This document shows, in pieces, positions 9,146 through 39,407 of a stretch of 64,000 nt of DNA. Under the pieces are notes generated by a model. The model was not told the DNA's origin, searched no databases, and saw only the letters and a list, made by a program, of their open reading frames with translations. The stretch is from contig NZ_JAKCFB010000009.1 in assembly GCF_024198235.1 (NCBI RefSeq), positions 62,001 through 126,000 on the forward strand. Direction: 5' to 3'. The stretch is from Myxococcus dinghuensis. Its GTDB lineage: Bacteria; Myxococcota; Myxococcia; Myxococcales; Myxococcaceae. Position 1 is the stretch's first letter. Each line of letters starts with the position of its first letter. The translations under genes and the position numbers were made by a program.

Positions 9146-10042
9146 TCAGTACCGGGAGTACGCCCCGGCTCGCGGCGTGTACACGTTCGCGCTCACGGAC
9201 CGTACGTCCACGTCGACGCCAATCAGGCTCTCCGCGTGTCCCAGGAAGAGGTGCCCGGTGGGCGCGAGTCTCCGGACCATCCCGTGAATCACGCGGTTGC
9301 GTGCGTCCGGCCCGAAGTAGATGAGCACGTTGCGGCAGAAGATGAGGTCGAACGGGCCCCCGGGCCACTCGCCCGTCGCGTTCAGGTTGACGCGCGAGAC
9401 GCGCAGGAGCGACCGCAGCTCCTGCCCCGCCTTCATGAGGCCTTCCTGGCTCCGCACGCCCTTGAGCATGAACTCGCGGAGCAGCGGCGGGGGAATCGTC
9501 GCCGCCCGGTCGAGACTCCAGAGTCCCTCCTGGGTGCGCTCCACCGCCCAGGTGGACAGGTCGGTGGCCAGGATCTCCACGTTCCACCCCGAGCCTCGTG
9601 GAAACGCGTCGAGCAGGCACATGGCCAGCGAGTAGGGCTCCTCCCCGGTGGAGCACGCCGCGCTCCACACACGGATGCTCCGGGCCCGGAGTCCCGCGTT
9701 CGCCTGCGCCTGCCACTCCGGGAAGACGCGCTCGCGCAGCAGCTCGAAGTGCTGGGGCTCGCGGAAGAAGGACGTCTCGTGGGTGCAGAGGCTGTCCAGC
9801 ATCCGCACCTTCTCCGCCTCGTGCCCCCGCTCGGTGACGTAGGCGTAGTAGTCGCCGAACGACGTCATCCCCAGCTCCCGGAGCCGGCGCGACAGGCGGT
9901 TGGCGACGAGCGCGTCCTTGGCGTCGGACAGGTGGATGCCCGTCTCGCGCTCCACCAGCGCCTGGAACAGCGCGAGCTCCCGGGGCTTCAGCACCGGGAT
10001 TCCGACGGGGAACAGGGCGGGCGGGCGCGTGGCGTCCGTCAT
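9146..10042 (-). CDS. cheR: CheR-type protein-glutamate methyltransferase
   Basis: A 298-residue protein with the CheR N-terminal helical domain (FQALVERETGIHLSDAK, LSRRLRELGMTSFGDYY) and the SAM-binding domain (VWSAACSTGEEPYSLAM, VEILATDLS, FDLIFCRNVLIYF). THETSFFREP is the family motif. It transfers methyl groups from SAM to glutamates of the chemoreceptor encoded in the same operon. It is the last of four genes, four bases after cheW. There is no TPR extension. Confidence 0.95.
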   Translation of the reverse strand: MTDATRPPALFPVGIPVLKPRELALFQALVERETGIHLSDAKDALVANRLSRRLRELGMTSFGDYYAYVTERGHEAEKVRMLDSLCTHETSFFREPQHFELLRERVFPEWQAQANAGLRARSIRVWSAACSTGEEPYSLAMCLLDAFPRGSGWNVEILATDLSTWAVERTQEGLWSLDRAATIPPPLLREFMLKGVRSQEGLMKAGQELRSLLRVSRVNLNATGEWPGGPFDLIFCRNVLIYFGPDARNRVIHGMVRRLAPTGHLFLGHAESLIGVDVDVRSVSANVYTPRAGAYSRY

Positions 10043-10046
10043 CGCA

Positions 10047-10628
10047 TCAGCCGTTCCCGGACGCCTCGCCCGGAGTGGCCTCGGAGGCAGCGGCCGGCGC
10101 GGGGACCGGCTCGGGGGCGGACGTGGGCTCGGACACGTCCGGGGGCGCGGCCGTCGTCAGGCTGAGCAACTCCTCCACGGACAAGAGCCGGTCCAGGTCC
10201 AGCAGCATGATGAACTTGGAGTCGTGCCGCCCCATGCCGAGCAGGAAGTCCAGCCGCACGCGCGTGCCGAAGGCGGGCGGGGTCTCGATGTCGTCCGACC
10301 CCAGCTCCAACACCTCGCTCACCGAGTCCGTCAGGAGGCCGATGGCGGTCTGCTTCCCGTCGAGGTTCACCTCGACGATGACGAAGCACGTCCACCGGGT
10401 GATGGGCCTCGGCGGCAGGCCGAACTTCACCGCCAGGTCCACCACGGGCACCACGCTGCCGCGCAGGTTGATGACACCCTGCACGGCCGCGGGCATGCCC
10501 GGCACGCGGGTGATGGGGCGGTGCTCGATGATCTCCCGCACCCGGAGGATGCCGACGCCGTACTCCTCGCCCGCGAGCATGAAGCTCAGGTAGTTCGTCC
10601 GCGTCGCCTTCTCGATGGAGTCGCTCAT
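10047..10628 (-). CDS. cheW: CheW-type coupling protein
   Basis: A 193-residue protein whose first 150 residues form one CheW domain (NYLSFMLAGEEYGVGILRVR, GVINLRGSVVPVVDLAVKFG, GLLTDSVSEVLELGSDDI). It links receptor to CheA. It has an extra C-terminal tail of about 40 residues rich in Ala, Pro, Glu and Thr that is probably disordered; ordinary CheW proteins are around 160 residues. It lies between mcp and cheR with gaps of 10 and 4 bases. Confidence 0.95.
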   Translation of the reverse strand: MSDSIEKATRTNYLSFMLAGEEYGVGILRVREIIEHRPITRVPGMPAAVQGVINLRGSVVPVVDLAVKFGLPPRPITRWTCFVIVEVNLDGKQTAIGLLTDSVSEVLELGSDDIETPPAFGTRVRLDFLLGMGRHDSKFIMLLDLDRLLSVEELLSLTTAAPPDVSEPTSAPEPVPAPAAASEATPGEASGNG

Positions 10629-10638
10629 GGCCCGCCGC

Positions 10639-12300
10639 CTAGAACCGCTGGAAGTCCTGGTTCGAATCCAGCGACGGTGACGTGGGCAGCGGCCCCCGCG
10701 CCGCCGCGAACAGCCCCTTCGCCGGCGACGGAGGCAGCCGCGAGGACGGGGCCTTCGGCAGCAACGGGCCCCGGCCCAGGCCGCCCGAGCCGTCCGCGAG
10801 GCGGAAGAAGGTCATCATCTGGAGCAGCGACTCGGCCTGCGTCGCCATCTCCTCGGCCGTGGAGGACAGCTCCTCCGCGGCGGATGCGTTGCGCTGGGTG
10901 ACCTGGTCCACCTGCACCATCGCGCGGTTCATCTGCGACACGCCGATGGCCTGCTCCTTCGATACCGTCGTCACCTGCTGTACCAGCTCCGCCGTGCGGC
11001 GGATGGCGGGCACCAGCTCCGTGAGCAGCTGACCGCTGCGCTCCGCCACGCGGACGCTGGAGGTGGCCAGGGCGCCAATCTCCTTCGCGGACTTCTGGCT
11101 GCGCTCGGCCAGCTTGCGCACCTCCGTGGCGACCACGGAGAAGCCCCGGCCATGCTCACCGGCGCGCGCGGCCTCCACCGCGGCGTTCAGCGCGAGCAGG
11201 TTCGTCTGGTACGCAATCTCCTCGACGATGGAGATGCGCTCCGCGATGGCGTTCATCGCCTCCACGGTCTCCTTCACCGCGCGCCCGCTCTCCTCCGCGT
11301 CGCGCGCGCCCTTGACGGCCATCTGCTCCATCTGCCGGCTGTTCTCCGCGTTCTGGCCGATGGTGACGTTGAGCTGCTCCAGGCTCGCGGTGGTCTCCTC
11401 CACCGACGCGGCCTGCGTGCTGGTGCCCTGGGACAGGCTCTGGGAGGCGGCGGCCACCTGGGTGGACGCGGAGGACAGCGAGCTGGCCGCGCCGCGCACC
11501 TCGCTGATGACCCCCGACAGGCGGTGGATCATCTCCCGCATGCCCGTCATCATCTGGCCCGTCTCGTCCTTGCCGCGGGAGGTGATGTTCGCCGTGAGGT
11601 CGCCGTTGGTGACCTGGTCGGTGACCTGCACGGCCTCCGACAGCGGGCGGACGATGCTGCGCGTGAGGACGTAGGACAGCAGGCCCGCGAGCACCACGCC
11701 CAGGGCACCGCCGAAGATGAGCGTGTCGTAGAGGACGGCCACCAGCTTGTTGAGCTCCTCCGTGCGCTTCGCCTGGATGGAGAGCTCCTCGCTGGCGACC
11801 TCGTCGAGGATGGCGCGCATCCGGTCGGCCATCTCCTTGCCCCGCGCCCCCTTCACCTCGTCGAAGAGCGCGTTCAGGTCCCCGTGGCCCGCGCTGACCT
11901 CGCGCCGGCGGGCGATGGTGGACTCGAGGTACTGCCCCTGCCACTGCTGCGCCAGGTCGCGGACTTCCTGGACGCGTTCCTGCTGGATGGGGTTGCCCGA
12001 GGTCAGCTCGCGGATGTGGTTGAGGTTCTGCGCGAAGTTGATGCGCGCGGACGTGTAGGGCGCCAGGAAGCGCTCGTCGCCGGTGATGAGGAAGCCGCGC
12101 TGGCCCGTCTCCAGGTCGGCGAAGTCACCCTCCAGGGTGCGCACGGCGATGATGACGTCGATGCTCTTGCGGTTGTCCTGGTCCGCGACGGACGTGCGGT
12201 TCAGCGTCGTGTACGTCGCCAGCACGATGGCGATGATGATGGCCACCATGGCGGTGAACGCCAGCAGCAGCTTGCGGGTGATGCTCAGGTTGTCGAACAT
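10639..12300 (-). CDS. Methyl-accepting chemotaxis protein with CHASE3-like sensor
   Basis: A 553-residue receptor. A first membrane segment ([20 protein letters not shown]) is followed by a helical periplasmic domain with [19 protein letters not shown], the signature of CHASE3 (five-helix) sensors, then a second membrane segment ([17 protein letters not shown]), a HAMP domain ([13 protein letters not shown]) and the signalling hairpin with the hallmark tip [21 protein letters not shown] short disordered, Ser/Pro-rich tail follows with no CheR-tethering pentapeptide. The ligand is unknown. It is three bases after cheA. Confidence 0.96.
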
Positions 12301-12303
12301 GGT

Positions 12304-14055
12304 TCACTGCTCCGTGTCGCGAAAGGTCGGGGCGCGGGTGGCGGCGTCGGACAGGTGCGCCGCCTCGCCCGGTTGGTAGTCGGAACGCTCGGCGGCCCGG
12401 CGGATGGCCCGGCGCACCAGCGAGGGGGTGTCCAGGATGAGGCCCACGCGGCCATCTCCCAGGATGGTGGAGCCGGAGATGCCCGGGGCGTCCTGGAACA
12501 GTCGCCCCAGGGGGCGGATGACGCGCTGACCATCTCCCTGGAGGTGGTCCACCGCGAGCCCGACGATGCCGTCCGGGTGGCGGAGCACGACGACGTTCTC
12601 CCGGGCCGGCGCCGTCCCTCCCAGCCCGAAGATGGTGCGCAGGCGCAGGTAGGGGAGCGGCTGCCCCCGCAGCGACAACATGCCGGCCTCCTCGGACGTG
12701 CGCTGCGACACGGGGAGCTCCAGGCACTCCTGCACCAGCTCGATGGGGACCACGTACACCTGGTCGCTCACGCCCATGGCGAAGCCCTGGATGACGGCGA
12801 GCGTGAGCGGCAGGCGGAGCGTCATCGTGGTGCCTCGCCCCTCCTGGCTCCGGACGGCCACCGTGCCGCGCATGGCCTCGATGTCCCGCCGCACCACATC
12901 CATCCCCACGCCGCGCCCCGACAGCTCCGTCACCGTCCTCGCGGTGGAGAAGCCGGGCTCGAAGATGAGCCGGTCCACCTCCTCGTCGCGCAGCCGCTCC
13001 GACGGGGACACCAGACCCAGCTCCCGGGCGCGCTCCTTGATGCGCTCGCGTTGCATGCCCCGGCCGTCATCGGAGAGCTCCACGACGACGCTCCCCGCAT
13101 CATGGACCGCCCGCAGGCGCAATCGGCCACACGCTTCTTTTCCCGCCGCGCGCCGCTCCTCGGGCGCCTCGATGCCGTGGTCCAGGGCGTTGCGCAGCAG
13201 GTGGAGCAGCGGGTCGCGCAGGGCCTCCAGCACGGCCGTGTCCAGGGTGACGTCCTCGCCCGCCAGCTCCAGCAACGCCTGCTTGCCCTGGTCCCTCGCC
13301 AGGTCGCGCACCGTGCGCAGGTGTTGTCGGAAGAGCGGCCCCACCGGCACCATGCGCACCTGCATCACCTCTTCCTGGAGCGCGTGGAAGAGGGAGTCCA
13401 TCTCCCGCTGCTGCGTGAGCGCCTCGTCCCAGCTCGCGCTGGACGCTTCGGCCTCCATCAGGAACTGCGTCATGCGCCCCCGCGCGATGGACAGCTCCGC
13501 GGTGAGGGTGACGATGCGGTCCAGCCGCTCGACGTCCATCCGCAGCGAGCGGCCGCGCGCCGCCGCGCGTGTCTCCACCGGTAGGGGGAGGTCCTCGACG
13601 GGGAGGACCCCGGGGGGCGGCGGGGTGCTCGGCCCACCCGTGGCGCCACCTTCCCGCAGGCGCGCGAGGTGGGCCTGGTGCGCGGGCCCCAACTGGTCCA
13701 CGCCCGCCACCGCCGCGCGCGACAGCTCCCGCAGGTGGTCCACCGAACCCAGCAGGAGTGAGGTCCAGGGCTCCCCCACGGCGAGGCGTTGGTCGAGCAG
13801 GGCCTGGATGACGTCCTCGGCGCCGTGGACGTAGTCCGTCAGCGCCTGGAAGCCCAGCGAGCTGCCGCTGCCCTTCAATGTGTGGGCCTGGCGGAAGAGC
13901 GCCCGCAGGCGCTCCTCGTCTGGCCGCGCCTCCAGGGCGATGAGCGTCTCCTCCATGGAGGAGAGCAGGTCCTCCGCCTCGTCGGCGAAGATGGCCAGCA
14001 CCTGTTGCCACTCGGCACCCAGGCCTGGCGGAGGTCCGCTGCCGCCGCCGCTCAC
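12304..14055 (-). CDS. cheA: CheA-type histidine kinase of a chemosensory system
   Basis: The GTG at 14055 has GGAGGAGG seven bases upstream and gives 583 residues; the same frame continues upstream but without family features. Domains in order: P1 with the phospho-His in QAHTLKGSGSSLG (about His58), a linker with no clear P2 (CheY/CheB binding) domain, P3 dimerisation helices (RLDRIVTLTAELSIARGRM), P4 ATPase with LRNALDHGIEAPEER, SDDGRGM and ELSGRGVGMDVV, and the CheW-like P5. It is the first gene of the operon cheA-mcp-cheW-cheR. The absence of P2 and of an adjacent cheY or cheB is unusual and suggests a non-flagellar output. Confidence 0.95.
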   Translation of the reverse strand: MSGGGSGPPPGLGAEWQQVLAIFADEAEDLLSSMEETLIALEARPDEERLRALFRQAHTLKGSGSSLGFQALTDYVHGAEDVIQALLDQRLAVGEPWTSLLLGSVDHLRELSRAAVAGVDQLGPAHQAHLARLREGGATGGPSTPPPPGVLPVEDLPLPVETRAAARGRSLRMDVERLDRIVTLTAELSIARGRMTQFLMEAEASSASWDEALTQQREMDSLFHALQEEVMQVRMVPVGPLFRQHLRTVRDLARDQGKQALLELAGEDVTLDTAVLEALRDPLLHLLRNALDHGIEAPEERRAAGKEACGRLRLRAVHDAGSVVVELSDDGRGMQRERIKERARELGLVSPSERLRDEEVDRLIFEPGFSTARTVTELSGRGVGMDVVRRDIEAMRGTVAVRSQEGRGTTMTLRLPLTLAVIQGFAMGVSDQVYVVPIELVQECLELPVSQRTSEEAGMLSLRGQPLPYLRLRTIFGLGGTAPARENVVVLRHPDGIVGLAVDHLQGDGQRVIRPLGRLFQDAPGISGSTILGDGRVGLILDTPSLVRRAIRRAAERSDYQPGEAAHLSDAATRAPTFRDTEQ

Positions 14056-29821: not shown

Positions 29822-31165
29822 TCACGCTCCGCCGCGGAGGCGGACTCCCAACCGCTTCATCATCGTGCGCACCGTGCCGCCAGGGTCCTTCGCGGTGCCG
29901 CGACCGACCTGTCCCAGCAGTCGTGCGGCCTCCGCTGCGTTGCCGCTGGCGCGCCGGAGCGCGGCCTCGAGCGCCATGCGCTCGAACCGTTCGAGCTCGG
30001 CGCGCAGGTTCATCGTCCCGGAGGCCACCCGGCGCTCCATCTCCCGCTCGGATACCAATGCGGAGGGGCTCGCCCGCTCCCGCTGCCAGAGTCGTCGCGG
30101 CAGGTCCGAGACGAGCAGCTCGTCCCCGGCGCGTTTGGCCACCAGGGCTCCGTAGATGACGTTCCTCAGCTCGCGCACATTGCCGGGCCAGGGATAGGCG
30201 CGCAGCACGTCGAGCGCCTCGGGGGTCGCGCTGCTCACGCGCGGACTGTCCGGCGCCGGCTCCTCGACCGCGTAGAAGCGCTCCAGCCAGTGCTGCACGA
30301 GCGGCGCCATGTCCTCCTGTCGCTCGCGCAGCGGGGGCAGGTGGATCTGCACCGTGGCGAGGCGCTCGTAGAGGTCCTCGCCGAACAGCCCCCGCTCGAT
30401 GAGCTGCTTCAAGTCCCGATTCGTCGCCGCGAGGATGCGGAAGTCCACCTTGCGCCACGCGTTCTCGCCCAGCCGCGAGATGACGCGGTCCTCCAGCACA
30501 CGCAGCAGCTTGGACTGGAGCGCGTGGGGGGTGTCGTCGATTTCGTCCAACAACACCGTGCCGCCCTCGGCCGCGGACACCAGGCCGTCGTAGCCATGCA
30601 CGGCTCCGGAGAAGGCCCCCTTCGCATAGCCGAAGAGTTCCCCCTCCATGAGTTCGTTGGGGATGGCCGCGCAGTTGATGGGGACGAAGGTGCGGGCGCG
30701 CCGTTCCGACCACTCGTGGATGAGCCGCGCGGCGACCTCCTTGCCCGTCCCCGTCTCGCCGGTGAGCAGCACGGGCATCGACGTGCGCGCCGCCTGTGCG
30801 AGTTGGGCGATGAGCGCCTTGGCCGCCGCGCTGTGCGCGATGAGCGTGCCGGGCACCTGGGGCGCGGGAGTCTCGACGAGGCTCTCCTCCAGCCTGCGCA
30901 CCAGCCGTGCCTGCCAGCCCTGGGCGCCCTTCCAGAACACGTCCGTGGCCCCCTGCTCCACCGCGAGCCGGAGCGCGTCGACGGGCACGGGTCGCTCGCA
31001 CAGCCACAGCCACCGCTCCGCCTTCGGTGGGCTCGCCAGCCGGGGCTGTGCGGAGCACACCACCGTCACCCGAGGTTCCCCACCGCCGAGCCTCCACCCC
31101 GCGTCATTCAAATACTGGAGGAGGGTGGCCTCCGGAGCGGGGCCTTTCCACTGCAGCGTTCGCAT
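29822..31165 (-). CDS. Sigma-54-dependent transcriptional activator
   Basis: A 447-residue protein from ATG 31165. Residues 1-105 form an unusual N-terminal sensor without a receiver or GAF signature. The AAA+ domain follows: Walker A GETGTGKE (136-143), sigma-54 contact loop GAFSGA (183-188, Ser in place of the usual Thr), Walker B LLDEIDD, and ERLATVQIHLPPLRERQED. The C-terminal Fis-type helix-turn-helix is ALRRASGNAAEAARLLG. It should bind an enhancer and drive RNA polymerase-sigma-54 opening. It is divergent from the SPFH gene, whose promoter region has a near-consensus sigma-54 site, so that gene is its likely target. Confidence 0.93.
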   Translation of the reverse strand: MRTLQWKGPAPEATLLQYLNDAGWRLGGGEPRVTVVCSAQPRLASPPKAERWLWLCERPVPVDALRLAVEQGATDVFWKGAQGWQARLVRRLEESLVETPAPQVPGTLIAHSAAAKALIAQLAQAARTSMPVLLTGETGTGKEVAARLIHEWSERRARTFVPINCAAIPNELMEGELFGYAKGAFSGAVHGYDGLVSAAEGGTVLLDEIDDTPHALQSKLLRVLEDRVISRLGENAWRKVDFRILAATNRDLKQLIERGLFGEDLYERLATVQIHLPPLRERQEDMAPLVQHWLERFYAVEEPAPDSPRVSSATPEALDVLRAYPWPGNVRELRNVIYGALVAKRAGDELLVSDLPRRLWQRERASPSALVSEREMERRVASGTMNLRAELERFERMALEAALRRASGNAAEAARLLGQVGRGTAKDPGGTVRTMMKRLGVRLRGGA

Positions 31166-31201
31166 GGGCACGATTCGAACACGGACAGGGCCTGATTTGA
31201 A

Positions 31202-31216
31202 TCCGGGTCTCCCGGA
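31202..31216. promoter_or_regulatory. Palindrome, possible enhancer site for the sigma-54 activator
   Basis: TCCGGG-TCT-CCCGGA, a perfect 6-3-6 palindrome, lies 30 bases upstream of the sigma-54 element and between the divergent genes. Its use as a binding site is inferred. Confidence 0.4.
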
Positions 31217-31310: not shown

Positions 31311-33233
31311 ATGGAATTCAACGTGGTTCTGGCCGGGGTCGCGGTGTTGTTGGGGGTCGGAGTGGTGCTCGTGCTCAGCGGTTTGCAGGTCATCGGCGAG
31401 AACGAGTCGGGGTTGGTCATCAAGAAGTTCGGCGCGTCGCTGCCGTCCGGTCAGTTGGTCGCGCTGGCGGGCGAGGCGGGCTACCAGGCGGAGCTGCTCC
31501 CGCCGGGGTGGCACTTCGGCTACCCGTTCTGGCGCTTCAAGGTGCTCCACGTCCCGGTGGTGGGGGTGCGGCAGGGGCACATCGCGCTCGTCGTGGCCAA
31601 TGGTGGCGCGGCCATCCCTCCCGGGAACATCCTCGGCCGCGAGGTGGACTGCGACGACTTCCAGGACGCCCGGGCGTTCCTCGTCGGTGGAGGGCAGAAG
31701 GGACGCCAGCTCGCGTTCCTCACCGCGGGCACGTATCGCATCAACCCCGCGCTGTTCACCGTCATCACGCCGGAGAACGCCGAGGCGTTCGACATGAGCG
31801 CGGAGGACCTGGAGGTCTTCGACCTGGGGCCCGACAAGGTGGGCATCGTGACGACGTTGGACGGCCGGCCGATTCCGCCCGGGGACCTGGCGGGGGCGCC
31901 GGTGGAGGGGCATGACTCGTTCCAGAGCGCCCAGCGCTTCCTCGACGAGGGCGGCTGCCGCGGCCTGCAGGAGCAGGTGTTGCTGTCGGGCTCGTGGAAC
32001 CTGAACCCGTGGTTCGTTCGCGTGGAGCAGTCGCCGATGACGGAGGTGCCGATCGGCTATGTCGGAGTGGTGGTCAGCTACGTGGGGCGCGAGCACCTGG
32101 ATGTGTCGGGTGACGAGTTCACCCACGGCGACCTGGTGGAGCGTGGGCGCAAGGGCGTGTGGATCGAACCGTTGCTGCCGGGCAAGCACCCGCTCAACAC
32201 GCGGGTGATGAAGGTGGAGCTGGTGCCCACGACGAACATCGTCCTCAACTGGGCGCAGCGGACCGAACAGCACAAGTACGACGAGAAGCTCAGTCCCATC
32301 ACGGTGCGCTCGCGGGACGGGTTCAGCTTCACGCTCGACGTGTCGCAGATCATCCACATCAGCATGAAGCAGGCGCCGCGCGTGATTTCGCGCGTGGGCT
32401 CCATGCAGAACCTGGTGGACCACGTGTTGCAACCCACGGTGGCGAACTACTTCCGCAACTCCGCGCAGCAGGTGTCGGTGCTGGAGTTCCTGTCGGCGCG
32501 CACGGACCGCCAGCGCGAGGCATACGAGGCCATCCGCGGGGCCCTGGGGGCGTATGACGTCGAGTGCATCGACACGCTCATCGGTGACATCCAGCCGCCG
32601 GCGGAGCTGATGAAGACGCAGACGGACCGGAAGATCGCCGAGGAGCTCCAGCGCACGTACGAGGTGCAGCGCGAGGCGCAGGTGCGGCGCCGCGAACTGG
32701 AGCGGGCGACGTCGGTGGCGAACATGCAAGGGGAGGTGGTGCGCAGCGAGCAGATGGTGGCCATCAGCGAGAAGGGCGCGCTCGCGGTGGAGGAGACGGC
32801 GAAGGGTGAGGCGGCGCGGACGCGACTGCACGCGGAGGCGGAGTCGCATGGTCTGCGGCTGCGCGCGGAGGCGGAGGCCCACGGCCTGAGGATGCGGGCG
32901 GAGGCGGAGGCGGCGTCGAAGCGGCTGCACGGCGGGGCCGAGGCCGAGGCGACGCGCCTCGTGGGTGAGGCGCGGGCGGAGGCGTACCGCACGGGCGTGA
33001 CGGCGCTCGGTGCCCAGGCCTTCACGGCCGTGCAACTGGCCACGGTGCTGGCGCAGCACGGGGTCAAGCTCGTCCCGGAGATCGCGCTCGGCCAGGACGG
33101 GGCGGGAGGGCAGGGGCTGTTGGGGGCGCTGATGGCGCGAGTGCTCCAGGGCGGGGTGGTGCCGCAGCTGCCTCAACGCCCCGTGAAGCCGCAGCAAGGC
33201 AACGGCGTGGAGCACGGCCACAAGGAGGCCTGA
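31311..33233 (+). CDS. Flotillin-like SPFH domain protein
   Basis: A 640-residue protein with an N-terminal membrane segment (FNVVLAGVAVLLGVGVVLVL). Two related blocks follow: one with GLVIKKFGASLPSGQ, LLPPGWHFGYP and GTYRINPALF, the other with KVGIVTTLDGRPIPPGDLAG and GSWNLNPWFVRVE. Then come the SPFH core (PIGYVGVVVSYVG, RDGFSFTLDVSQIIHIS) and a long Ala/Glu/Arg coiled coil (LHAEAESHGLRLRAEAEAHG) ending in TALGAQAFTAVQLATVLAQH. Flotillins scaffold membrane microdomains. The ordinary length is about 450-500, so the extra N-terminal blocks are notable. AGGAGAAGG precedes the ATG. Confidence 0.88.
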   Translation: MEFNVVLAGVAVLLGVGVVLVLSGLQVIGENESGLVIKKFGASLPSGQLVALAGEAGYQAELLPPGWHFGYPFWRFKVLHVPVVGVRQGHIALVVANGGAAIPPGNILGREVDCDDFQDARAFLVGGGQKGRQLAFLTAGTYRINPALFTVITPENAEAFDMSAEDLEVFDLGPDKVGIVTTLDGRPIPPGDLAGAPVEGHDSFQSAQRFLDEGGCRGLQEQVLLSGSWNLNPWFVRVEQSPMTEVPIGYVGVVVSYVGREHLDVSGDEFTHGDLVERGRKGVWIEPLLPGKHPLNTRVMKVELVPTTNIVLNWAQRTEQHKYDEKLSPITVRSRDGFSFTLDVSQIIHISMKQAPRVISRVGSMQNLVDHVLQPTVANYFRNSAQQVSVLEFLSARTDRQREAYEAIRGALGAYDVECIDTLIGDIQPPAELMKTQTDRKIAEELQRTYEVQREAQVRRRELERATSVANMQGEVVRSEQMVAISEKGALAVEETAKGEAARTRLHAEAESHGLRLRAEAEAHGLRMRAEAEAASKRLHGGAEAEATRLVGEARAEAYRTGVTALGAQAFTAVQLATVLAQHGVKLVPEIALGQDGAGGQGLLGALMARVLQGGVVPQLPQRPVKPQQGNGVEHGHKEA

Positions 33234-33254
33234 GGGCGTCGAAGTGAGTCGGGG

Positions 33255-33276
33255 CGTGCATCCGGGTGGGTGCACG
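33255..33276. repeat. Short inverted repeat after the SPFH gene
   Basis: CGTGCA and TGCACG enclose 10 bases, extendable by two G-T pairs. It lies 22 bases after the SPFH stop and could weaken read-through into the next gene. Confidence 0.4.
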
Positions 33277-33311
33277 GCCCTCCGTTGGATGCGTCGGATT
33301 CGGGAGGTCTG

Positions 33312-34103
33312 GTGGACGGCGAGGCGAGGACCCTGCTCCTGCGAGCGCTCCGGGAAGTACCCCATGGCGCGGGGCCTGGGGGCCTGCGCGGCCTCGGCCT
33401 GCTCCTCGAGTCCGCCGTGGCTGGGGATGCGGTGGGAGACTCGCGCCTCGCGGAGGAGTTCGTCCGGATTCTCGGCCCGGTGATGGGCGAGGCGACGCCG
33501 GTGACGGTCGTCGACGCGGTGGCGTTCATGACCGGCGTGCGGGCGGACCTCCTCGTCGTCGCGCTGCCCAGGCTCCGCGGCGCGCTCGACGAGGTTCGCG
33601 GCTCGAAGAGGCTCCTGACGCGCGAAGCTGTCGCCGTGCTGTCGGAAGCCGAGGCGCTGCTCCAGGAGGCGCCGGCCACGAAGACCCGCGAGGTGCTGGA
33701 GGCCGCCCTCGCCGAGGCCCGGGGGGGGCTCGCGAGGGAGCTGTCGCGGCTTCATTCGCCCGTCCCCGTCATCGCGGCGGAGGCGCTCCCTCTCGCGCGC
33801 TGGATGTTCGGGGTGGGACCACCGCCGAGGGGCGCGGCGGTGCTGGAGCTGGCGCGCTGTCTGGATGACTTCTGTCAGCGGTCGCCGCTGAGCCCGACGG
33901 ACCTGGAGGCGCTCCGGTCGCTCGCACGTCGGGCGGACGCTGAGCGCGACTGGCCCGGATGGACCCGGCTGTTGGAGCGGCTGCGCACGATTCGTCCCCG
34001 GTTGCTGCCCCGGAAGGCGCTGCCCCCACTCTATCGCTCCCTGGCGGGCGTCTCTGAATGGGGGAGCCAGGAACCCCGGTCCCTCGAGGCGTTGTTGCGA
34101 TGA
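33312..34103 (+). CDS. Helical protein of unknown function
   Basis: A GTG at 33312 with GGGAGG five bases upstream gives 263 residues; a GTG at 33270 is an alternative. The protein is rich in Leu, Ala, Arg and Glu, has no signal or membrane segment, and looks like repeated amphipathic helices (LLLRALREVPHGAG, ALPRLRGALDEVRGS, LLERLRTIRPRLL), as in HEAT/TPR-like scaffolds. No family recognised. It sits between the SPFH gene and the Omp85-like gene on the same strand. Confidence 0.65.
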   Translation: MDGEARTLLLRALREVPHGAGPGGLRGLGLLLESAVAGDAVGDSRLAEEFVRILGPVMGEATPVTVVDAVAFMTGVRADLLVVALPRLRGALDEVRGSKRLLTREAVAVLSEAEALLQEAPATKTREVLEAALAEARGGLARELSRLHSPVPVIAAEALPLARWMFGVGPPPRGAAVLELARCLDDFCQRSPLSPTDLEALRSLARRADAERDWPGWTRLLERLRTIRPRLLPRKALPPLYRSLAGVSEWGSQEPRSLEALLR

Positions 34104-34209
34104 CCCGGGGCTTCGAGCACCTGGCCCTCGGGCGGGAGCCTCGCCACTGTCACCGACTGTCGTCTGCTTGTGACATGGCGATCCCGTGGCGAAGACTGAG
34201 GATGGGCGC

Positions 34210-35964
34210 GTGTCACTCCCGTTGCTCGGTCTCCTCGTCGCGTCGCTGTCCACGACTCCTCCGGAGCCGCCGGCGGAGGCCGTCTCCTCCCAGGTGAACT
34301 ACGAGGACGCGCTCGTGCGCTGGGGCCTCGACAGCCTGGGATTGACGCGGGCCGAGACGCCGGAGGGCAAGCGGCTCGAGGCGGTGTGGGTGGCCCGCGA
34401 GGACGTCGTCTCCGAGAGCGACCCCTATCCGAACTTCCTCAACCTGCTGCACGCACGCACACGCGAGGAGGTGGTCCGGCGCGAGGTGCTGCTCACGCCC
34501 GGACAGCCCTACCTGGCGGCCCTCGCCGACGAGACGGCCCGGAACCTGCGGCGCCTGGGCATCTTCTCTGCGGTGCGGGTGGTGCCCGTGCGGGGCTCCG
34601 GGCCCGACACGGTGTCGCTGCTCGTCATCACCAAGGACGTGTGGTCGCTGCGGCTCAACAACGACTTCTCCGCGGTCGGGGCGCTGTTGCAGTACCTGCG
34701 GCTCCAGGCCACCGAGGACAACTTCCTCGGGCTCGCGAAGAAGGTGGCGCTCGACTTCATCCTGAACCTGGACACCTTCTCCGTGGGGCAGAGCTACGCG
34801 GACAAGCAGGTGCTCGGCAGCCGCTGGACGCTCACGGAGTCCGCGGCGGTCATCTTCGGCCGCGAGAGCGGCAGGGCCGAGGGCTCCCGGGGCGGCCTCA
34901 CCCTCAGCCGGCCGCTCTACTCCCTCTCCACGCCCTGGAGCGTCACCGCGCAGGTGGCGTGGAACGTGGAGACCTCGCGCACCTTCCAGGGCCCGGACGT
35001 GTGGCAGCTCCCGTACCCGGACGGGGCGCCCGTGCCCTACGTCTTCAACACGCGCGAGGTGACGGGCAGCGTGCTCTACGTGCGCTCGTGGGGGGACACC
35101 TCCAAGTGGGAGCTGGGCGGCGGCGCGGGGGCCTACAGCAAGGCCTACGCGCCCCCGGTGGCGGCGCCGCTCGACGCCGGACAGCGCGCCTGGTTCGAGC
35201 GCCACTACCTGCCGCGCTCGGAGGACGCGGGCTACGCGGTCACCACCCTGCGGGCGTGGCAGGCCCGGTACGAGGTGCTGCGCGACGTGGACACGTACTC
35301 GCTCTCCGAGGACTTCCAGGTCGGCCACTCGGTGTCGTTCACGCTGCGCTACGCGGCTCCCGTCTTTCCCTCCGCCGCGCACTTCGTGGAGGCGGGGGTG
35401 GGCGCGCGCTACCGCGTGCGCCTGGGGGACGCGCTCACCACCGTGGCCGCGGCCGGCTCGCTCCGGCGTCAGTTCGACGACCGGGACGGGTGGTCCAATC
35501 GCCGCTGGGCGGCGGAGGTCCACCAGGTCTCGCCGCGTGTGTTGGGCGGTCGCTTCGTCGCGCGGGGGCTCGTGGACGTGAACATCGACGACCTGGTGGA
35601 GCGGGTCGTCCTCCTCGGCGGTGGCAACGGATTGAGGGGCGCGAGGGTGGACGCCTACTCGGGACAGCGACTGCTCCTCTTCAACGTGGAGTACCGCACC
35701 GCGCCGCTCATCCTCCGCACGCTGCACGTGGGTGGGGTGCTCTTCTACGACGGCGGCAGCGTGTTCGAGCGCAGCCCCCGGCTCGTACACTCGGTGGGGC
35801 TGGGCGTGCGCCTGCTGCTCCCCCAATTCAACATCATCCCGTTCCGTCTCGACTTCGGCTACGTGCTCGACGACGACCGCCCCCCGGTGGGGAGCCGCTT
35901 CCTGGTGGGCGGTGGGCAGATCACCGACTTCCGGCCCGTGTTCCTGGAGACGCCGCTGCGCTGA
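34210..35964 (+). CDS. BamA/TamA-like outer-membrane protein (Omp85 family)
   Basis: From GTG 34210 (GAGGAT upstream; GTG 34186 possible) the protein has 584 residues with a short signal peptide (LLGLLVASLSTTPP). Residues about 60-145 look like one POTRA domain (REEVVRREVLLTPGQPYLAA, RNLRRLGIFSAVRVVPV, VSLLVITKDVWSLR). The rest is a beta-barrel with alternating strands and the surface-antigen region (RLLLFNVEYRTAP, GGVLFYDGGSVF, GLGVRLLLPQFNIIPFRLDF). It ends in TPLR rather than an aromatic residue. Such proteins insert or export proteins or lipids at the outer membrane; with a single POTRA it is a divergent member. Confidence 0.82.
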   Translation: MSLPLLGLLVASLSTTPPEPPAEAVSSQVNYEDALVRWGLDSLGLTRAETPEGKRLEAVWVAREDVVSESDPYPNFLNLLHARTREEVVRREVLLTPGQPYLAALADETARNLRRLGIFSAVRVVPVRGSGPDTVSLLVITKDVWSLRLNNDFSAVGALLQYLRLQATEDNFLGLAKKVALDFILNLDTFSVGQSYADKQVLGSRWTLTESAAVIFGRESGRAEGSRGGLTLSRPLYSLSTPWSVTAQVAWNVETSRTFQGPDVWQLPYPDGAPVPYVFNTREVTGSVLYVRSWGDTSKWELGGGAGAYSKAYAPPVAAPLDAGQRAWFERHYLPRSEDAGYAVTTLRAWQARYEVLRDVDTYSLSEDFQVGHSVSFTLRYAAPVFPSAAHFVEAGVGARYRVRLGDALTTVAAAGSLRRQFDDRDGWSNRRWAAEVHQVSPRVLGGRFVARGLVDVNIDDLVERVVLLGGGNGLRGARVDAYSGQRLLLFNVEYRTAPLILRTLHVGGVLFYDGGSVFERSPRLVHSVGLGVRLLLPQFNIIPFRLDFGYVLDDDRPPVGSRFLVGGGQITDFRPVFLETPLR

Positions 35965-36863: not shown

Positions 36864-39407
36864 TCAAGGTGTCCCTGGCAGTGACACGCGCTGGGGCTGG
36901 GTGAGGTATTCCGTCAGGCCGTTTCCGAGCTGCCCGAGCGGGTTGTTCCCCCACGCCCAGACGGTTCCATCTCCGGCCACGGCGAGCGAGTGGTCGGTCC
37001 CCGCCGCGACGACGCGAACGCTCGGGAGCGAGGCAATCGCCTCGGGGGACTTCCGGTCGGGGCCGGCTCCGAGCCCCAGCGCGCCGAAGCTGTTCCGCCC
37101 CCAGGCGCCCGGCGGGCTCCCCTCGCGTACGGCCAGCGAGTGGCGGCTCCCCGCCGCGACGGCCGTGACGCCGCCGAGCCCGGGCACCGGCCCGGGGATG
37201 GCCCTCGCTCCGGAGATGGACGCGTCGCCGAGCTGCCCAGCCAGGTTCCATCCCCAGGAGCGGACGGTGCCATCCACCAGGAGCGCCAGTGAGTGGTAGT
37301 CCCCGGCCGCCACGGCGACGGCGTTCGCCACGCCTTGCACCTGCACGGGCGTGGTGTGTTGGGTCTGGGTTCCATCCCCCAACTGACCGAAGGTGTTGTC
37401 GCCCCAGGCCCAGACGGTGCCGTCGCTCCGCACGGCCAACGAATGGCTGTGGTGGGTGGCGATGGCCGTGACACCCGTCAACCCCGGGACCTGCACGGGC
37501 CGATAGCGCGACTCGGTCGTTCCGTCGCCGAGCTGCCCGTAGAAGTTCGACCCCCAACCCCAGACGGTGCCACCGCCGCCCAAGGCCAGCGAATGGTCAC
37601 TCCCCGCGGCCACGGCCGTGATGCCGGTCAATCCCTCCACCGGCAAGGGGACGACGCGGCGGTATTCGGCCCCGCCTCCTCCTCCGAGCGCTCCCCCGTG
37701 GCCGGTCCCCCAGGACAGGACGGTGCCATCGCCGCGCAAGGCCAGCGAATGCTCGGCGCCCGTGGCGACGGCGCGGACCTGCTCGAGTGAGGGGACCCGA
37801 ACCGGCGAAGCGCTCCCGCCGAGCGCCGTGCCGATGCCCAGTTGGGCGGAAGCATTGTCGCCCCAGGCCCAGACCTGCCCCTCACCATCCACGGCCAGGG
37901 AGTGGCTCTTGCCCGCGGCCACGGCGGTGGCGCCCGTGGGCCCTGTCACCTGCACCGGCGTGCTGCGGCTCGCCTCCAGGGGAGTGCCCGCCTGTCCCCG
38001 GCGGTTGTCGCCCCAGGCCCACAGGCTCCCGTCCTCGAGTACCACCAAGGCATGGGCGCGCCCCGCGTCCATGGCGGTCACCCCCGCGACCCCGGGGACC
38101 CTCTTCGGCTGTCGCTTGAGGGTGGTCCCATCCCCCGCCTGACCCAGGGTGTTGAGGCCCCAGGCCCACACGCTGCCATCGCCCATCTGGACCATCGCGA
38201 AGGCGTTTCCCAGGCTGACGTCCACGGCACCGGCCACCCCTGGGAGCCGCGCGGGCTCGCGGCGCAACAGCACCACGTCGGCCCCCATGATGCCGCCCTC
38301 GTTGTATCCCCATGCCCAGAGCGTGCCGTCCATGAGGACCGCCAGCGAGAGGGTGCCTCCCGCGGAGACCGCGACCGCCTCCGTCAAACGGCTCACCGCG
38401 ACGGGCGTGAGCCTGGGACTGCCTCCTGGGCTTCCGCCGTCACCGAGTTGGCCATCGCTGTCGTCTCCCCAGGCCCGAACCCCGCCGTCCGCCAGCACCG
38501 CGAGCGAATGACTGGCACCCGCGGAGATGTGGGTGACCCGCGTCAGCCCTGTCACCTGCACGGGTTGCGAGCGGGCCTCTTGCGTCCCATCGCCGAGCTG
38601 CCCCTGGGCGTTGTCTCCCCAGGCCCAGACCGTGCCATCCTTCCGCAGCGCCAGGGAGTGGCGAGCCCCGGAGGAGAGGGCGACGACGTCCGTCAGTCCC
38701 GACACCCGCGCTGGCCGGCTCCGCGTCGTCGTCGTTCCATCGCCGAGCTGCCCTTGTGTGTTGTATCCCCACGCGGAGACGGTGCCATCGAAGTGGAGCG
38801 CGAGCGTATGGTAGGCACCGGCTGAAACGGCCATCACATCCTTCAGCCCCAGCACCTCCACGAACCCGTCGGAGCGCGAGGTCGTGGGCTCCCCGAGGCG
38901 GCTGAAGAGACTGTCGCCCCAGGTCCAGACGGTGCCATTCTCGCGCGCGACGACGGAGTGCTCCTCCCCCGCGGAGATGGCCAGGGGCCCCTGACACGGC
39001 ACGACGGCGATCCGGAAGGTCTTCTGGGTGGCGGGCGCCACGTCGTTGGTCAGGGTGACGGTCACCTCGGCCCGCGTCCCGGCGGGCAGGCAGTCCGGTC
39101 CCCGCCACGCGACGTCGCTGGTCGTCGCGCCGCTCTCGGCGGGCTCGAGGAGGCCCTCGCTGGCGTCCCAACTGAACGTGAGGGGCCGCCCGGCATCGTC
39201 CTTCGCCTCGACGTGGAGCTTCACCGTGTCGTAGGCCCGTGCGTTGAGTGCCGACTGGGTGCTCGCGATGACCTCGGGCGGTCGTGGAGCGGGCTTCGGG
39301 TCGGAGTCGGAACAACCGCTGCCCGTCGCCACCAGGGCCAGCAGCGCGAACTGGACCGCGTGAACCGACCACGAACGCCAGGAAGGAAGCTCACGGCTTC
39401 GATTCAT
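36864..39407 (-). CDS. Large RCC1-repeat lipoprotein
   Basis: An 847-residue protein from ATG 39407. A basic leader and hydrophobic core end at lipobox TGSGC (near residue 32). An Ig-like region (LNARAYDTVKLHVEAKDDAG) to about 150 is followed by some 13 RCC1-type repeats of about 50 residues, each of the form VxAVAAGxxHSLALxxDGTV, WAWGDN, GQLGDG. They form one or two seven-bladed propellers. Such secreted RCC1 proteins are common in myxobacteria; their ligand is unknown. The repeats are similar at base level, so recombination between them is possible. Confidence 0.88.
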   Translation of the reverse strand: MNRSRELPSWRSWSVHAVQFALLALVATGSGCSDSDPKPAPRPPEVIASTQSALNARAYDTVKLHVEAKDDAGRPLTFSWDASEGLLEPAESGATTSDVAWRGPDCLPAGTRAEVTVTLTNDVAPATQKTFRIAVVPCQGPLAISAGEEHSVVARENGTVWTWGDSLFSRLGEPTTSRSDGFVEVLGLKDVMAVSAGAYHTLALHFDGTVSAWGYNTQGQLGDGTTTTRSRPARVSGLTDVVALSSGARHSLALRKDGTVWAWGDNAQGQLGDGTQEARSQPVQVTGLTRVTHISAGASHSLAVLADGGVRAWGDDSDGQLGDGGSPGGSPRLTPVAVSRLTEAVAVSAGGTLSLAVLMDGTLWAWGYNEGGIMGADVVLLRREPARLPGVAGAVDVSLGNAFAMVQMGDGSVWAWGLNTLGQAGDGTTLKRQPKRVPGVAGVTAMDAGRAHALVVLEDGSLWAWGDNRRGQAGTPLEASRSTPVQVTGPTGATAVAAGKSHSLAVDGEGQVWAWGDNASAQLGIGTALGGSASPVRVPSLEQVRAVATGAEHSLALRGDGTVLSWGTGHGGALGGGGGAEYRRVVPLPVEGLTGITAVAAGSDHSLALGGGGTVWGWGSNFYGQLGDGTTESRYRPVQVPGLTGVTAIATHHSHSLAVRSDGTVWAWGDNTFGQLGDGTQTQHTTPVQVQGVANAVAVAAGDYHSLALLVDGTVRSWGWNLAGQLGDASISGARAIPGPVPGLGGVTAVAAGSRHSLAVREGSPPGAWGRNSFGALGLGAGPDRKSPEAIASLPSVRVVAAGTDHSLAVAGDGTVWAWGNNPLGQLGNGLTEYLTQPQRVSLPGTP

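What the first reader, a model, noticed from the sequence alone, without database searches (positions are those of the whole stretch)
31311..35964. SPFH, helical unknown and single-POTRA Omp85 in one row
Three same-strand genes join an inner-membrane flotillin-like scaffold with two extra N-terminal related blocks, a helical protein of no known family and a divergent BamA-like barrel. If conserved together, this may be an undescribed envelope-spanning lipid or protein handling system under sigma-54 control.
Basis: inference. Interest (0 to 1): 0.7.

Follow-up and report, generated by a model that had tools for sequence, protein, structure and literature searches.

The report
Sigma-54-controlled, vault-like bacterial SPFH membrane protein
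The three neighbouring genes are not a conserved team; the lasting unit is a membrane-anchored SPFH protein, predicted to be built like a small half of the eukaryotic vault particle, paired with an activator gene that is transcribed away from it and probably switches it on.

Summary
The genes exist as described, but the trio is not conserved. In 146 Myxococcota genomes a close SPFH gene occurs in 18; Omp85 was seen beside it only in this genome, as an extra paralogue. The helical gene follows SPFH in 9 of 9 genomes compared but is fast-evolving and confined to three genera. The conserved unit is SPFH plus the divergent sigma-54 activator: both in 17 genomes, one alone in 2. Wider, 22 of the 80 best SPFH loci hold the activator, divergent in all 22, with a GG-N10-GC promoter in 19 (8 of 171 control upstreams) and paired operators. 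The activator's N-terminus is a predicted receiver fold without phosphorylation residues. Top SPFH homologues in other phyla are about 60% identical. The predicted N-terminal beta modules match major vault protein repeats best (Z 9.6), before an SPFH domain and long helix and behind a membrane helix: a possible membrane-anchored half-vault. Sequence profiles find no vault repeats, so this rests on predicted fold. A membrane-stress role is inferred.

The parts
29822..31165 (-). bEBP: sigma-54 activator (receiver-like N-terminus, AAA+ domain with GAFSGA, Fis-type HTH), divergent from SPFH
   Evidence: PF00158 E 1e-60, PF02954 E 3.5e-6; GAFSGA in 17 of 18 aligned orthologues, GAFTGA in one; divergent in 22 of 22 loci that hold it
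30866..31165 (-). Receiver-like domain (residues about 1-100) without phosphorylation residues
   Evidence: AlphaFold2 pLDDT 85.7; by their titles all 50 listed VIA rows are receivers or proteins with one, best Z 11.6, rmsd 2.2, 93 residues; no conserved acidic, Asp or Lys positions at the expected places in 17 sequences
31169..31206 (.). Paired operator-like sites (16-mers at 31169 and 31191, 22 bp apart), just upstream of the activator start codon
   Evidence: positions; information content 14.6 bits against 6.4 +/- 0.8 in control upstreams, 12.7 against 5.7 +/- 0.7 with two loci added back; exact pair found once in the 10.4-Mb genome
31247..31262 (+). -24/-12 type promoter TGGCAGGGGGCATGCA, 64 nt before the SPFH ATG
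   Evidence: footprint across genera; 18 of 21 loci against 8 of 171 control upstreams
31311..33233 (+). SPFH protein, 640 aa: membrane helix, beta modules, SPFH domain, long helix
   Evidence: PF01145 E 1.6e-24; model meff170e1c206
31314..31379 (+). N-terminal membrane helix (residues 2-23)
   Evidence: helix in the model; no Lys/Arg before it in 36 of the 38 homologues that could be scored, of 81
31386..31568 (+). First beta module (residues 26-86), resembles the SPFH1 part of HflC
   Evidence: VIA Z 6.3, rmsd 3.7, 61 residues with 7vhq_G, model range 5-83
31566..31769 (+). Repeat block 1 (residues 86-153)
   Evidence: block HMM E 3e-32; paired with block 2 at 98% probability
31830..32033 (+). 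Repeat block 2 (residues 174-241)
   Evidence: block HMM E 6e-33; lies in the region whose predicted fold matches vault repeats
32046..32681 (+). Band_7/SPFH domain (residues 246-457)
   Evidence: Pfam; this part of the model is poor, pLDDT under 50 over most of 307-440
32604..33008 (+). Long helix (residues 432-566), cap-helix-like
   Evidence: model secondary structure, pLDDT about 50-73
33285..34103 (+). Helical protein of no known family, lineage-restricted, directly after SPFH
   Evidence: 12 of 96 family genomes; dN/dS about 0.37 against 0.16 for SPFH, 8 genomes
34186..35964 (+). Omp85 paralogue with one POTRA; probably a chance neighbour, not part of the unit
   Evidence: second copy at G000:C45 66% identical; settings of the extra copies differ

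Best explanation
The functional unit is a two-gene divergent module. A sigma-54 activator with a receiver-like but non-phosphorylatable N-terminus binds a pair of operators between the genes and fires a -24/-12 promoter for an SPFH protein (shown as sequence footprints; binding and activity inferred). The SPFH protein is anchored by one N-terminal helix, carries a first beta module and two tandem blocks (three in distant homologues) of the SPFH1/vault-repeat kind, then the SPFH domain and a long helix, and most likely forms a ring-shaped, membrane-seated half-vault with its body in the cytoplasm (module fold predicted; assembly and topology inferred). By analogy with PspF-PspA, induction probably answers membrane damage: the cage encloses and stabilises or quarantines a membrane patch, and excess cage may switch the activator off (inferred). 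The helical protein is a lineage-specific, probably co-transcribed accessory; the Omp85 gene is unrelated.
For: Co-occurrence 17 both, 1 SPFH only, 1 activator only, 127 neither of 146, Fisher 4.8e-20. Divergent in 22 of 22 loci that hold the activator: one search gave 21, of which 17 adjacent and 4 with 1-5 genes between; one search added L106. Promoter: 18 of 21 against 8 of 171, p 2e-16; non-redundant 13 of 16, p 3e-12. Operators, exact pair once in the genome (relaxed hits). Distances of activator and SPFH correlate, Mantel rho 0.86 over 18 and 0.79 over 14 sequences, 0 of 5000 permutations each. Vault proteins fill the first 14 Foldseek rows, best E 1.7e-6, and the first 12 VIA rows, Z 7.5-9.6 against 6.3 for the best non-vault row. 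The block profile also hits the SPFH1 part in two distant homologues (E 1e-7, 3e-5) and block number varies. N-flank without positive charge.
Against: Vault repeats are not detected by sequence: Pfam Vault in 0 of 40 and 0 of 14 rows of two overlapping alignments (HMMER filters drop most weak matches), and the block HMM finds nothing in ten bacterial MVPs. The profile match to bacterial MVP (83%, E 8.4e-6; reversed control 4.9%) lies at the shoulder-helix end, falls to about 20% for sub-regions, and the beta-module region alone gives 0.5%; the MVP profile was shallow. Foldseek TM-scores are low (0.11-0.37) and rmsd over whole chains large, 80-97 in most rows. The SPFH core of the model is poor, mean pLDDT 64, pTM 0.48. 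The VIA note warns that Z under about 13 for repeats may mean only a common arrangement. In the loci titled cyanobacteria, Chloroflexi, Verrucomicrobia or Hymenobacter no such activator was found, so the control is not a property of the whole family. The palindrome-only operator test was weak. No stress link was tested.
Confidence: 0.55

Rival explanations
1. An ordinary SPFH microdomain scaffold (flotillin/HflC-like) with duplicated SPFH1 modules; the likeness to vault repeats is convergence of stacked small beta domains and says nothing of a vault-like cage.
For: The block profile hits the SPFH1 part in distant homologues; nearest solved sequence relatives are QmcA, prohibitin, HflC and flotillin; no vault Pfam hit.
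Against: Vault proteins outrank every SPFH structure listed in both fold comparisons, and one vault chain aligns co-linearly over residues 2-561 (Z 7.8, though rmsd 85.7).
Confidence: 0.35
2. A conserved envelope-spanning three-gene system of SPFH, helical protein and Omp85.
For: Same strand, short gaps, no terminator-like site found between the genes.
Against: Omp85 seen beside SPFH in 1 of 18 genomes; its extra copies in G000, G115, G125, G129 and G109 share with one another no homologous neighbour but one 30%-identical pair (G115, G129) in the stretches compared.
Confidence: 0.03
3. The SPFH-helical pair is the working unit and the helical protein is an NfeD-like obligate partner in these genera.
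For: Directly after SPFH in 9 of 9 genomes compared; purifying selection, dN/dS about 0.37.
Against: No match in 9 of the 18 genomes with close SPFH; a stop codon inside it in G109; 60-65% identity where SPFH is 89-94% (48 and 84 in G048); no family hit above cut-off.
Confidence: 0.12

Closest known systems
Major vault protein (MVP) and the vault
   Same: Predicted order of tandem beta modules, SPFH domain, long helix; best structural match. True MVP genes also occur in 13 of 146 Myxococcota genomes.
   Different: Membrane helix at the N-terminus; two or three blocks plus a first module, not nine repeats (nine: PMC13100048, Discussion); no sequence-level vault repeats.
HflK/HflC, QmcA, prohibitin cages
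   Same: N-terminal membrane helix and SPFH domain followed by a long helix; QmcA is the best solved sequence relative.
   Different: Extra beta modules between membrane and SPFH domain; N-flank without positive charge, suggesting the opposite topology from HflC (the charged HflC start is recalled).
FloT/YuaG bacterial flotillins
   Same: SPFH domain and Ala/Glu-rich helix; weak FloT hit.
   Different: 22.6 bits against a cut-off of 700.
PspF-PspA (phage shock) regulation
   Same: Sigma-54 activator controlling a membrane-protecting target (passages of PMC9239133); divergent gene order and UAS I/II of psp are recalled.
   Different: Activator carries a receiver-like domain; target is SPFH and not PspA.
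RtcR/PspF-type activators
   Same: AAA+ region hits PADLOC RtcR_PspF2 at E 1.5e-92.
   Different: The match starts at residue 100, so no CARF part is matched; a receiver fold is predicted there.

Membership tests
SPFH/Band_7 superfamily | PF01145 over its cut-off | tested here: met
   87.4 bits against 23.6; matched by 40 of 40 and 14 of 14 alignment rows
FloT flotillin (NF058507) | equivalog cut-off 700 bits | tested here: not met
   22.6 bits
Major vault protein | Pfam Vault repeat PF01505 | tested here: not met
   0 of 40 and 0 of 14 alignment rows, overlapping sets
Major vault protein | tandem vault-repeat fold before an SPFH shoulder | tested here: inconclusive
   Z 9.6, rmsd 4.9, 188 residues on a predicted model; the tool warns for repeats
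Major vault protein | 39-fold half-shells forming a closed barrel | not testable with these tools
   needs electron microscopy
Sigma-54 activators (bEBP) | Sigma54_activat AAA+ domain and Fis-type HTH | tested here: met
Sigma-54 activators (bEBP) | GAFTGA loop | tested here: inconclusive
   GAFSGA in 17 of 18, GAFTGA in one; tolerance of Ser is recalled only
Two-component response regulators | receiver fold | tested here: met
   VIA Z 11.6, rmsd 2.2, 93 residues on a predicted model
Two-component response regulators | phosphorylatable Asp and acidic pair | tested here: not met
   no conserved acidic residue at those places in 17 sequences (read with the strands)
Psp system | PspA target beside the activator | tested here: not met
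   target is SPFH
BamA (TIGR03303) | equivalog cut-off 297 bits | tested here: not met
   50.7 bits; Omp85 superfamily PF01103 is met
Three-gene SPFH/helical/Omp85 system | conserved adjacency | tested here: not met
   seen in 1 of 18 genomes

The most novel reading that the evidence does not exclude
Bacteria of several phyla possess a membrane-anchored half-vault: an SPFH cage lengthened by SPFH1-derived modules that are the same kind of stave as vault repeats, making it a living intermediate between membrane SPFH cages and the eukaryotic vault, and in Myxococcota it is wired to its own sigma-54 stress switch.
Probability: 0.3. Interest if true: 0.85.

Novelty: new variant of a known kind. 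Interest (0 to 1): 0.6.

Why it matters
The function and origin of vaults are open questions. A 2026 paper calls the MVP domains unique to the vault and contrasts the vault with membrane-anchored SPFH half-cages (PMC13100048, Discussion read). A conserved bacterial protein that combines anchor, vault-like modules and SPFH domain would make the origin of the vault testable in a tractable organism, and the adjacent sigma-54 switch offers a handle on when such a cage is needed.

Tried and rejected
Trio as a system: rejected on gene order. Anti-phage defence role: PADLOC gave no hit for SPFH, helical or Omp85. Receiver homology by sequence alone was not significant (hhalign 1.9% and hmmsearch E 0.006 at best; no receiver family in Pfam) and rests on the predicted fold. 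Operators scored as pure palindromes gave a weak result: combined p 7e-4 over 14 loci, many single loci unconvincing (for example L100, L101, L104, L111), this window's own pair not above shuffles (0.21), and SPFH-side sites in the four loci with inserted genes not significant. The fixed-position test used 14 sequences (window, 12 loci, G106); before it I left out L104 and L111, where I saw no site at that place, and L091, L100 and L141 as near-duplicates, and never stacked L090, L092, L093, L094. Adding L104 and L111 back gives 12.7 bits against 5.7 +/- 0.7, none of 3000 samples reaching it. Relaxed operator hits elsewhere in the genome: three other places with 2-3 mismatches, two of them tRNA-like by eye. 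L124 has a promoter-like site (score 14) without an activator found. For the topology test 43 of 81 proteins were dropped because motif or start was not found, and starts were picked by script. The co-occurrence count leaves out the 22 genomes with only weaker SPFH matches, among them G014 and G088 with distant homologues (30-44%) and no activator match. Prior-art searches; no listed title or abstract start describes vault-like modules in bacterial SPFH proteins, but most subscription papers and the bioRxiv library are not held. Bacterial MVP in the literature is recalled, not looked up.
Full report
What is there. The three genes are real and the description of their domains is right. The SPFH protein has two N-terminal blocks that are relatives of each other (98% profile probability). 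The upstream gene on the other strand encodes a sigma-54 activator.

Gene order. Of 146 Myxococcota genomes (drawn evenly from the phylum), 40 have some SPFH match at E 0.001 and 18 have the close protein (E below 1e-240, best matches 66-100% identical; in G131 and G055 the match is split in two pieces). Ten have a helical match; one of those, G038, is a short 30% match in a 3545-aa frame that I set aside, and in the other nine the gene lies within about 420 nt after SPFH (coordinates). Within the family the helical gene is in 12 of 96 genomes, three genera. Omp85 matches occur in 128 of 146, yet I saw one next to SPFH only in this genome. This genome has a second full-length copy (G000:C45, 66%), in the neighbourhood shared by the core copy of G109. 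The extra copies of G000, G115, G125, G129 and G109 share, in the 13-17 kb compared, no homologous neighbour except one 30%-identical pair in G115 and G129. The trio is therefore most likely a local arrangement.

The conserved pair. Activator orthologues (E under 1e-100) are in 18 of 146 genomes; 17 of them also hold the close SPFH, G106 does not, and G055 has SPFH only. In G106 the activator faces an OmpA-domain gene and an ABC-permease gene. Of these, 21 have the activator by gene calling and L106 by tblastn, 22 of 80, all divergent. Their record titles include Myxococcus, Corallococcus, Pyxidicoccus, Archangium, Hyalangium, Kofleriaceae, unclassified Deltaproteobacteria, Rokuibacteriota and an unclassified Proteobacteria; many are MAGs. 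Several of the 58 others lie on contigs too short upstream to tell. None of the loci titled cyanobacteria, Chloroflexi, Verrucomicrobia or Hymenobacter shows the activator in the DNA held.

Control region. Just upstream of SPFH lies a GG-N10-GC element (TGGCAGGGGGCATGCA here), aligned across genera. A consensus score of 13 or more of 16 is reached in 18 of 21 loci (19 of 22 with L106, whose score 15 is) against 8 of 171 upstreams of other called genes in the same loci, p 2e-16 for 18 of 21; the non-redundant figure is 13 of 16, p 3e-12. Among SPFH loci counted there as lacking the activator, L124 also reaches 14. Right before the activator start is a pair of A+T-rich sites with CG edges, 22 bp apart in this genome. 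At fixed offset, 14 sequences (window, 12 loci, G106) have 14.6 bits of information against 6.4 +/- 0.8 in samples from 128 control upstreams; with L104 and L111, first left out, it is 12.7 against 5.7 +/- 0.7. The exact pair occurs once in the own genome, so the activator is probably dedicated to this locus. The lay-out resembles pspF-pspA as recalled.

The activator. It has the AAA+ sigma-54 domain and HTH. Its first 118 residues find, by sequence, only 17 genomes of 146, all of them among the 18 with the orthologue. The predicted model (pLDDT 85.7) is a shortened receiver fold (Z 11.6) with no conserved phosphorylation residues. So it is not a classical response regulator; its signal is unknown.

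The SPFH protein. In an alignment of 40 (window and 39 of the 80 best loci), homologues from other phyla by title keep about 60% identity with it; the scan kept only the best matches, so this is the upper range. The AlphaFold2 model is confident for residues 1-250 and poor for much of the SPFH core. The first 14 Foldseek rows are major vault proteins, at low TM-scores; on re-alignment vault proteins hold the first 12 rows, Z 7.5-9.6, the next being HflC at 6.3. A block profile finds two strong copies here and four in two distant Myxococcaceae homologues (second SPFH of G067, and G088), where the last copy falls on the SPFH1 part itself, E 1e-7 and 3e-5; one search confirms the fourth copy in G067 (E 2e-6) and lists three for G088. 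So the modules are probably SPFH1 duplicates, and vault repeats may be the same kind of module. Sequence does not confirm vault membership. The N-terminal flank before the membrane helix has no Lys or Arg in 36 of 38 homologues that could be scored, of 81, which by the positive-inside rule favours a cytoplasmic body.

Mechanism. Shown: gene pairing, promoter and operator footprints, block duplication. Predicted: receiver fold, vault-like modules. Inferred: ring assembly at the membrane, induction by membrane damage, feedback on the activator. SPFH proteins and PSP partners are linked in print (passages of PMC11237479 and PMC9239133); those passages and the listings of the searches named do not describe this activator-SPFH pair.

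Verdict.

Noticed in passing
G122:C577, G058:C76, G078:C1 and others; loci L201-L210: True major-vault-protein genes (ten examined, 755-760 aa; Pfam Vault repeats over cut-off) occur in 13 of 146 Myxococcota genomes, in two genera, with no match in the window's genome.
   Followed up: partly
L184 5219-11662: In G106 the same activator type faces an OmpA-domain gene followed by an ABC permease, instead of SPFH, with strong operator palindromes.
   Followed up: partly
L087 2787-4841 and L088 5801-7894: Distant SPFH homologues with four block copies in all, without the activator in the stretch held.
   Followed up: partly
L079 between 7972 and 11886: Three genes lie between activator and SPFH in G118, one with a weak outer-membrane beta-barrel hit; G067 and G126 have other genes there.
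   Followed up: no
window 9146-14055: Row of minus-strand genes that look like a chemotaxis operon (CheR, CheW, MCP, CheA by eye), not tested.
   Followed up: no
window 36864-39332: Protein with many HSLAL and WGxNxxGQLG-like repeats, RCC1-like by eye, not tested.
   Followed up: no
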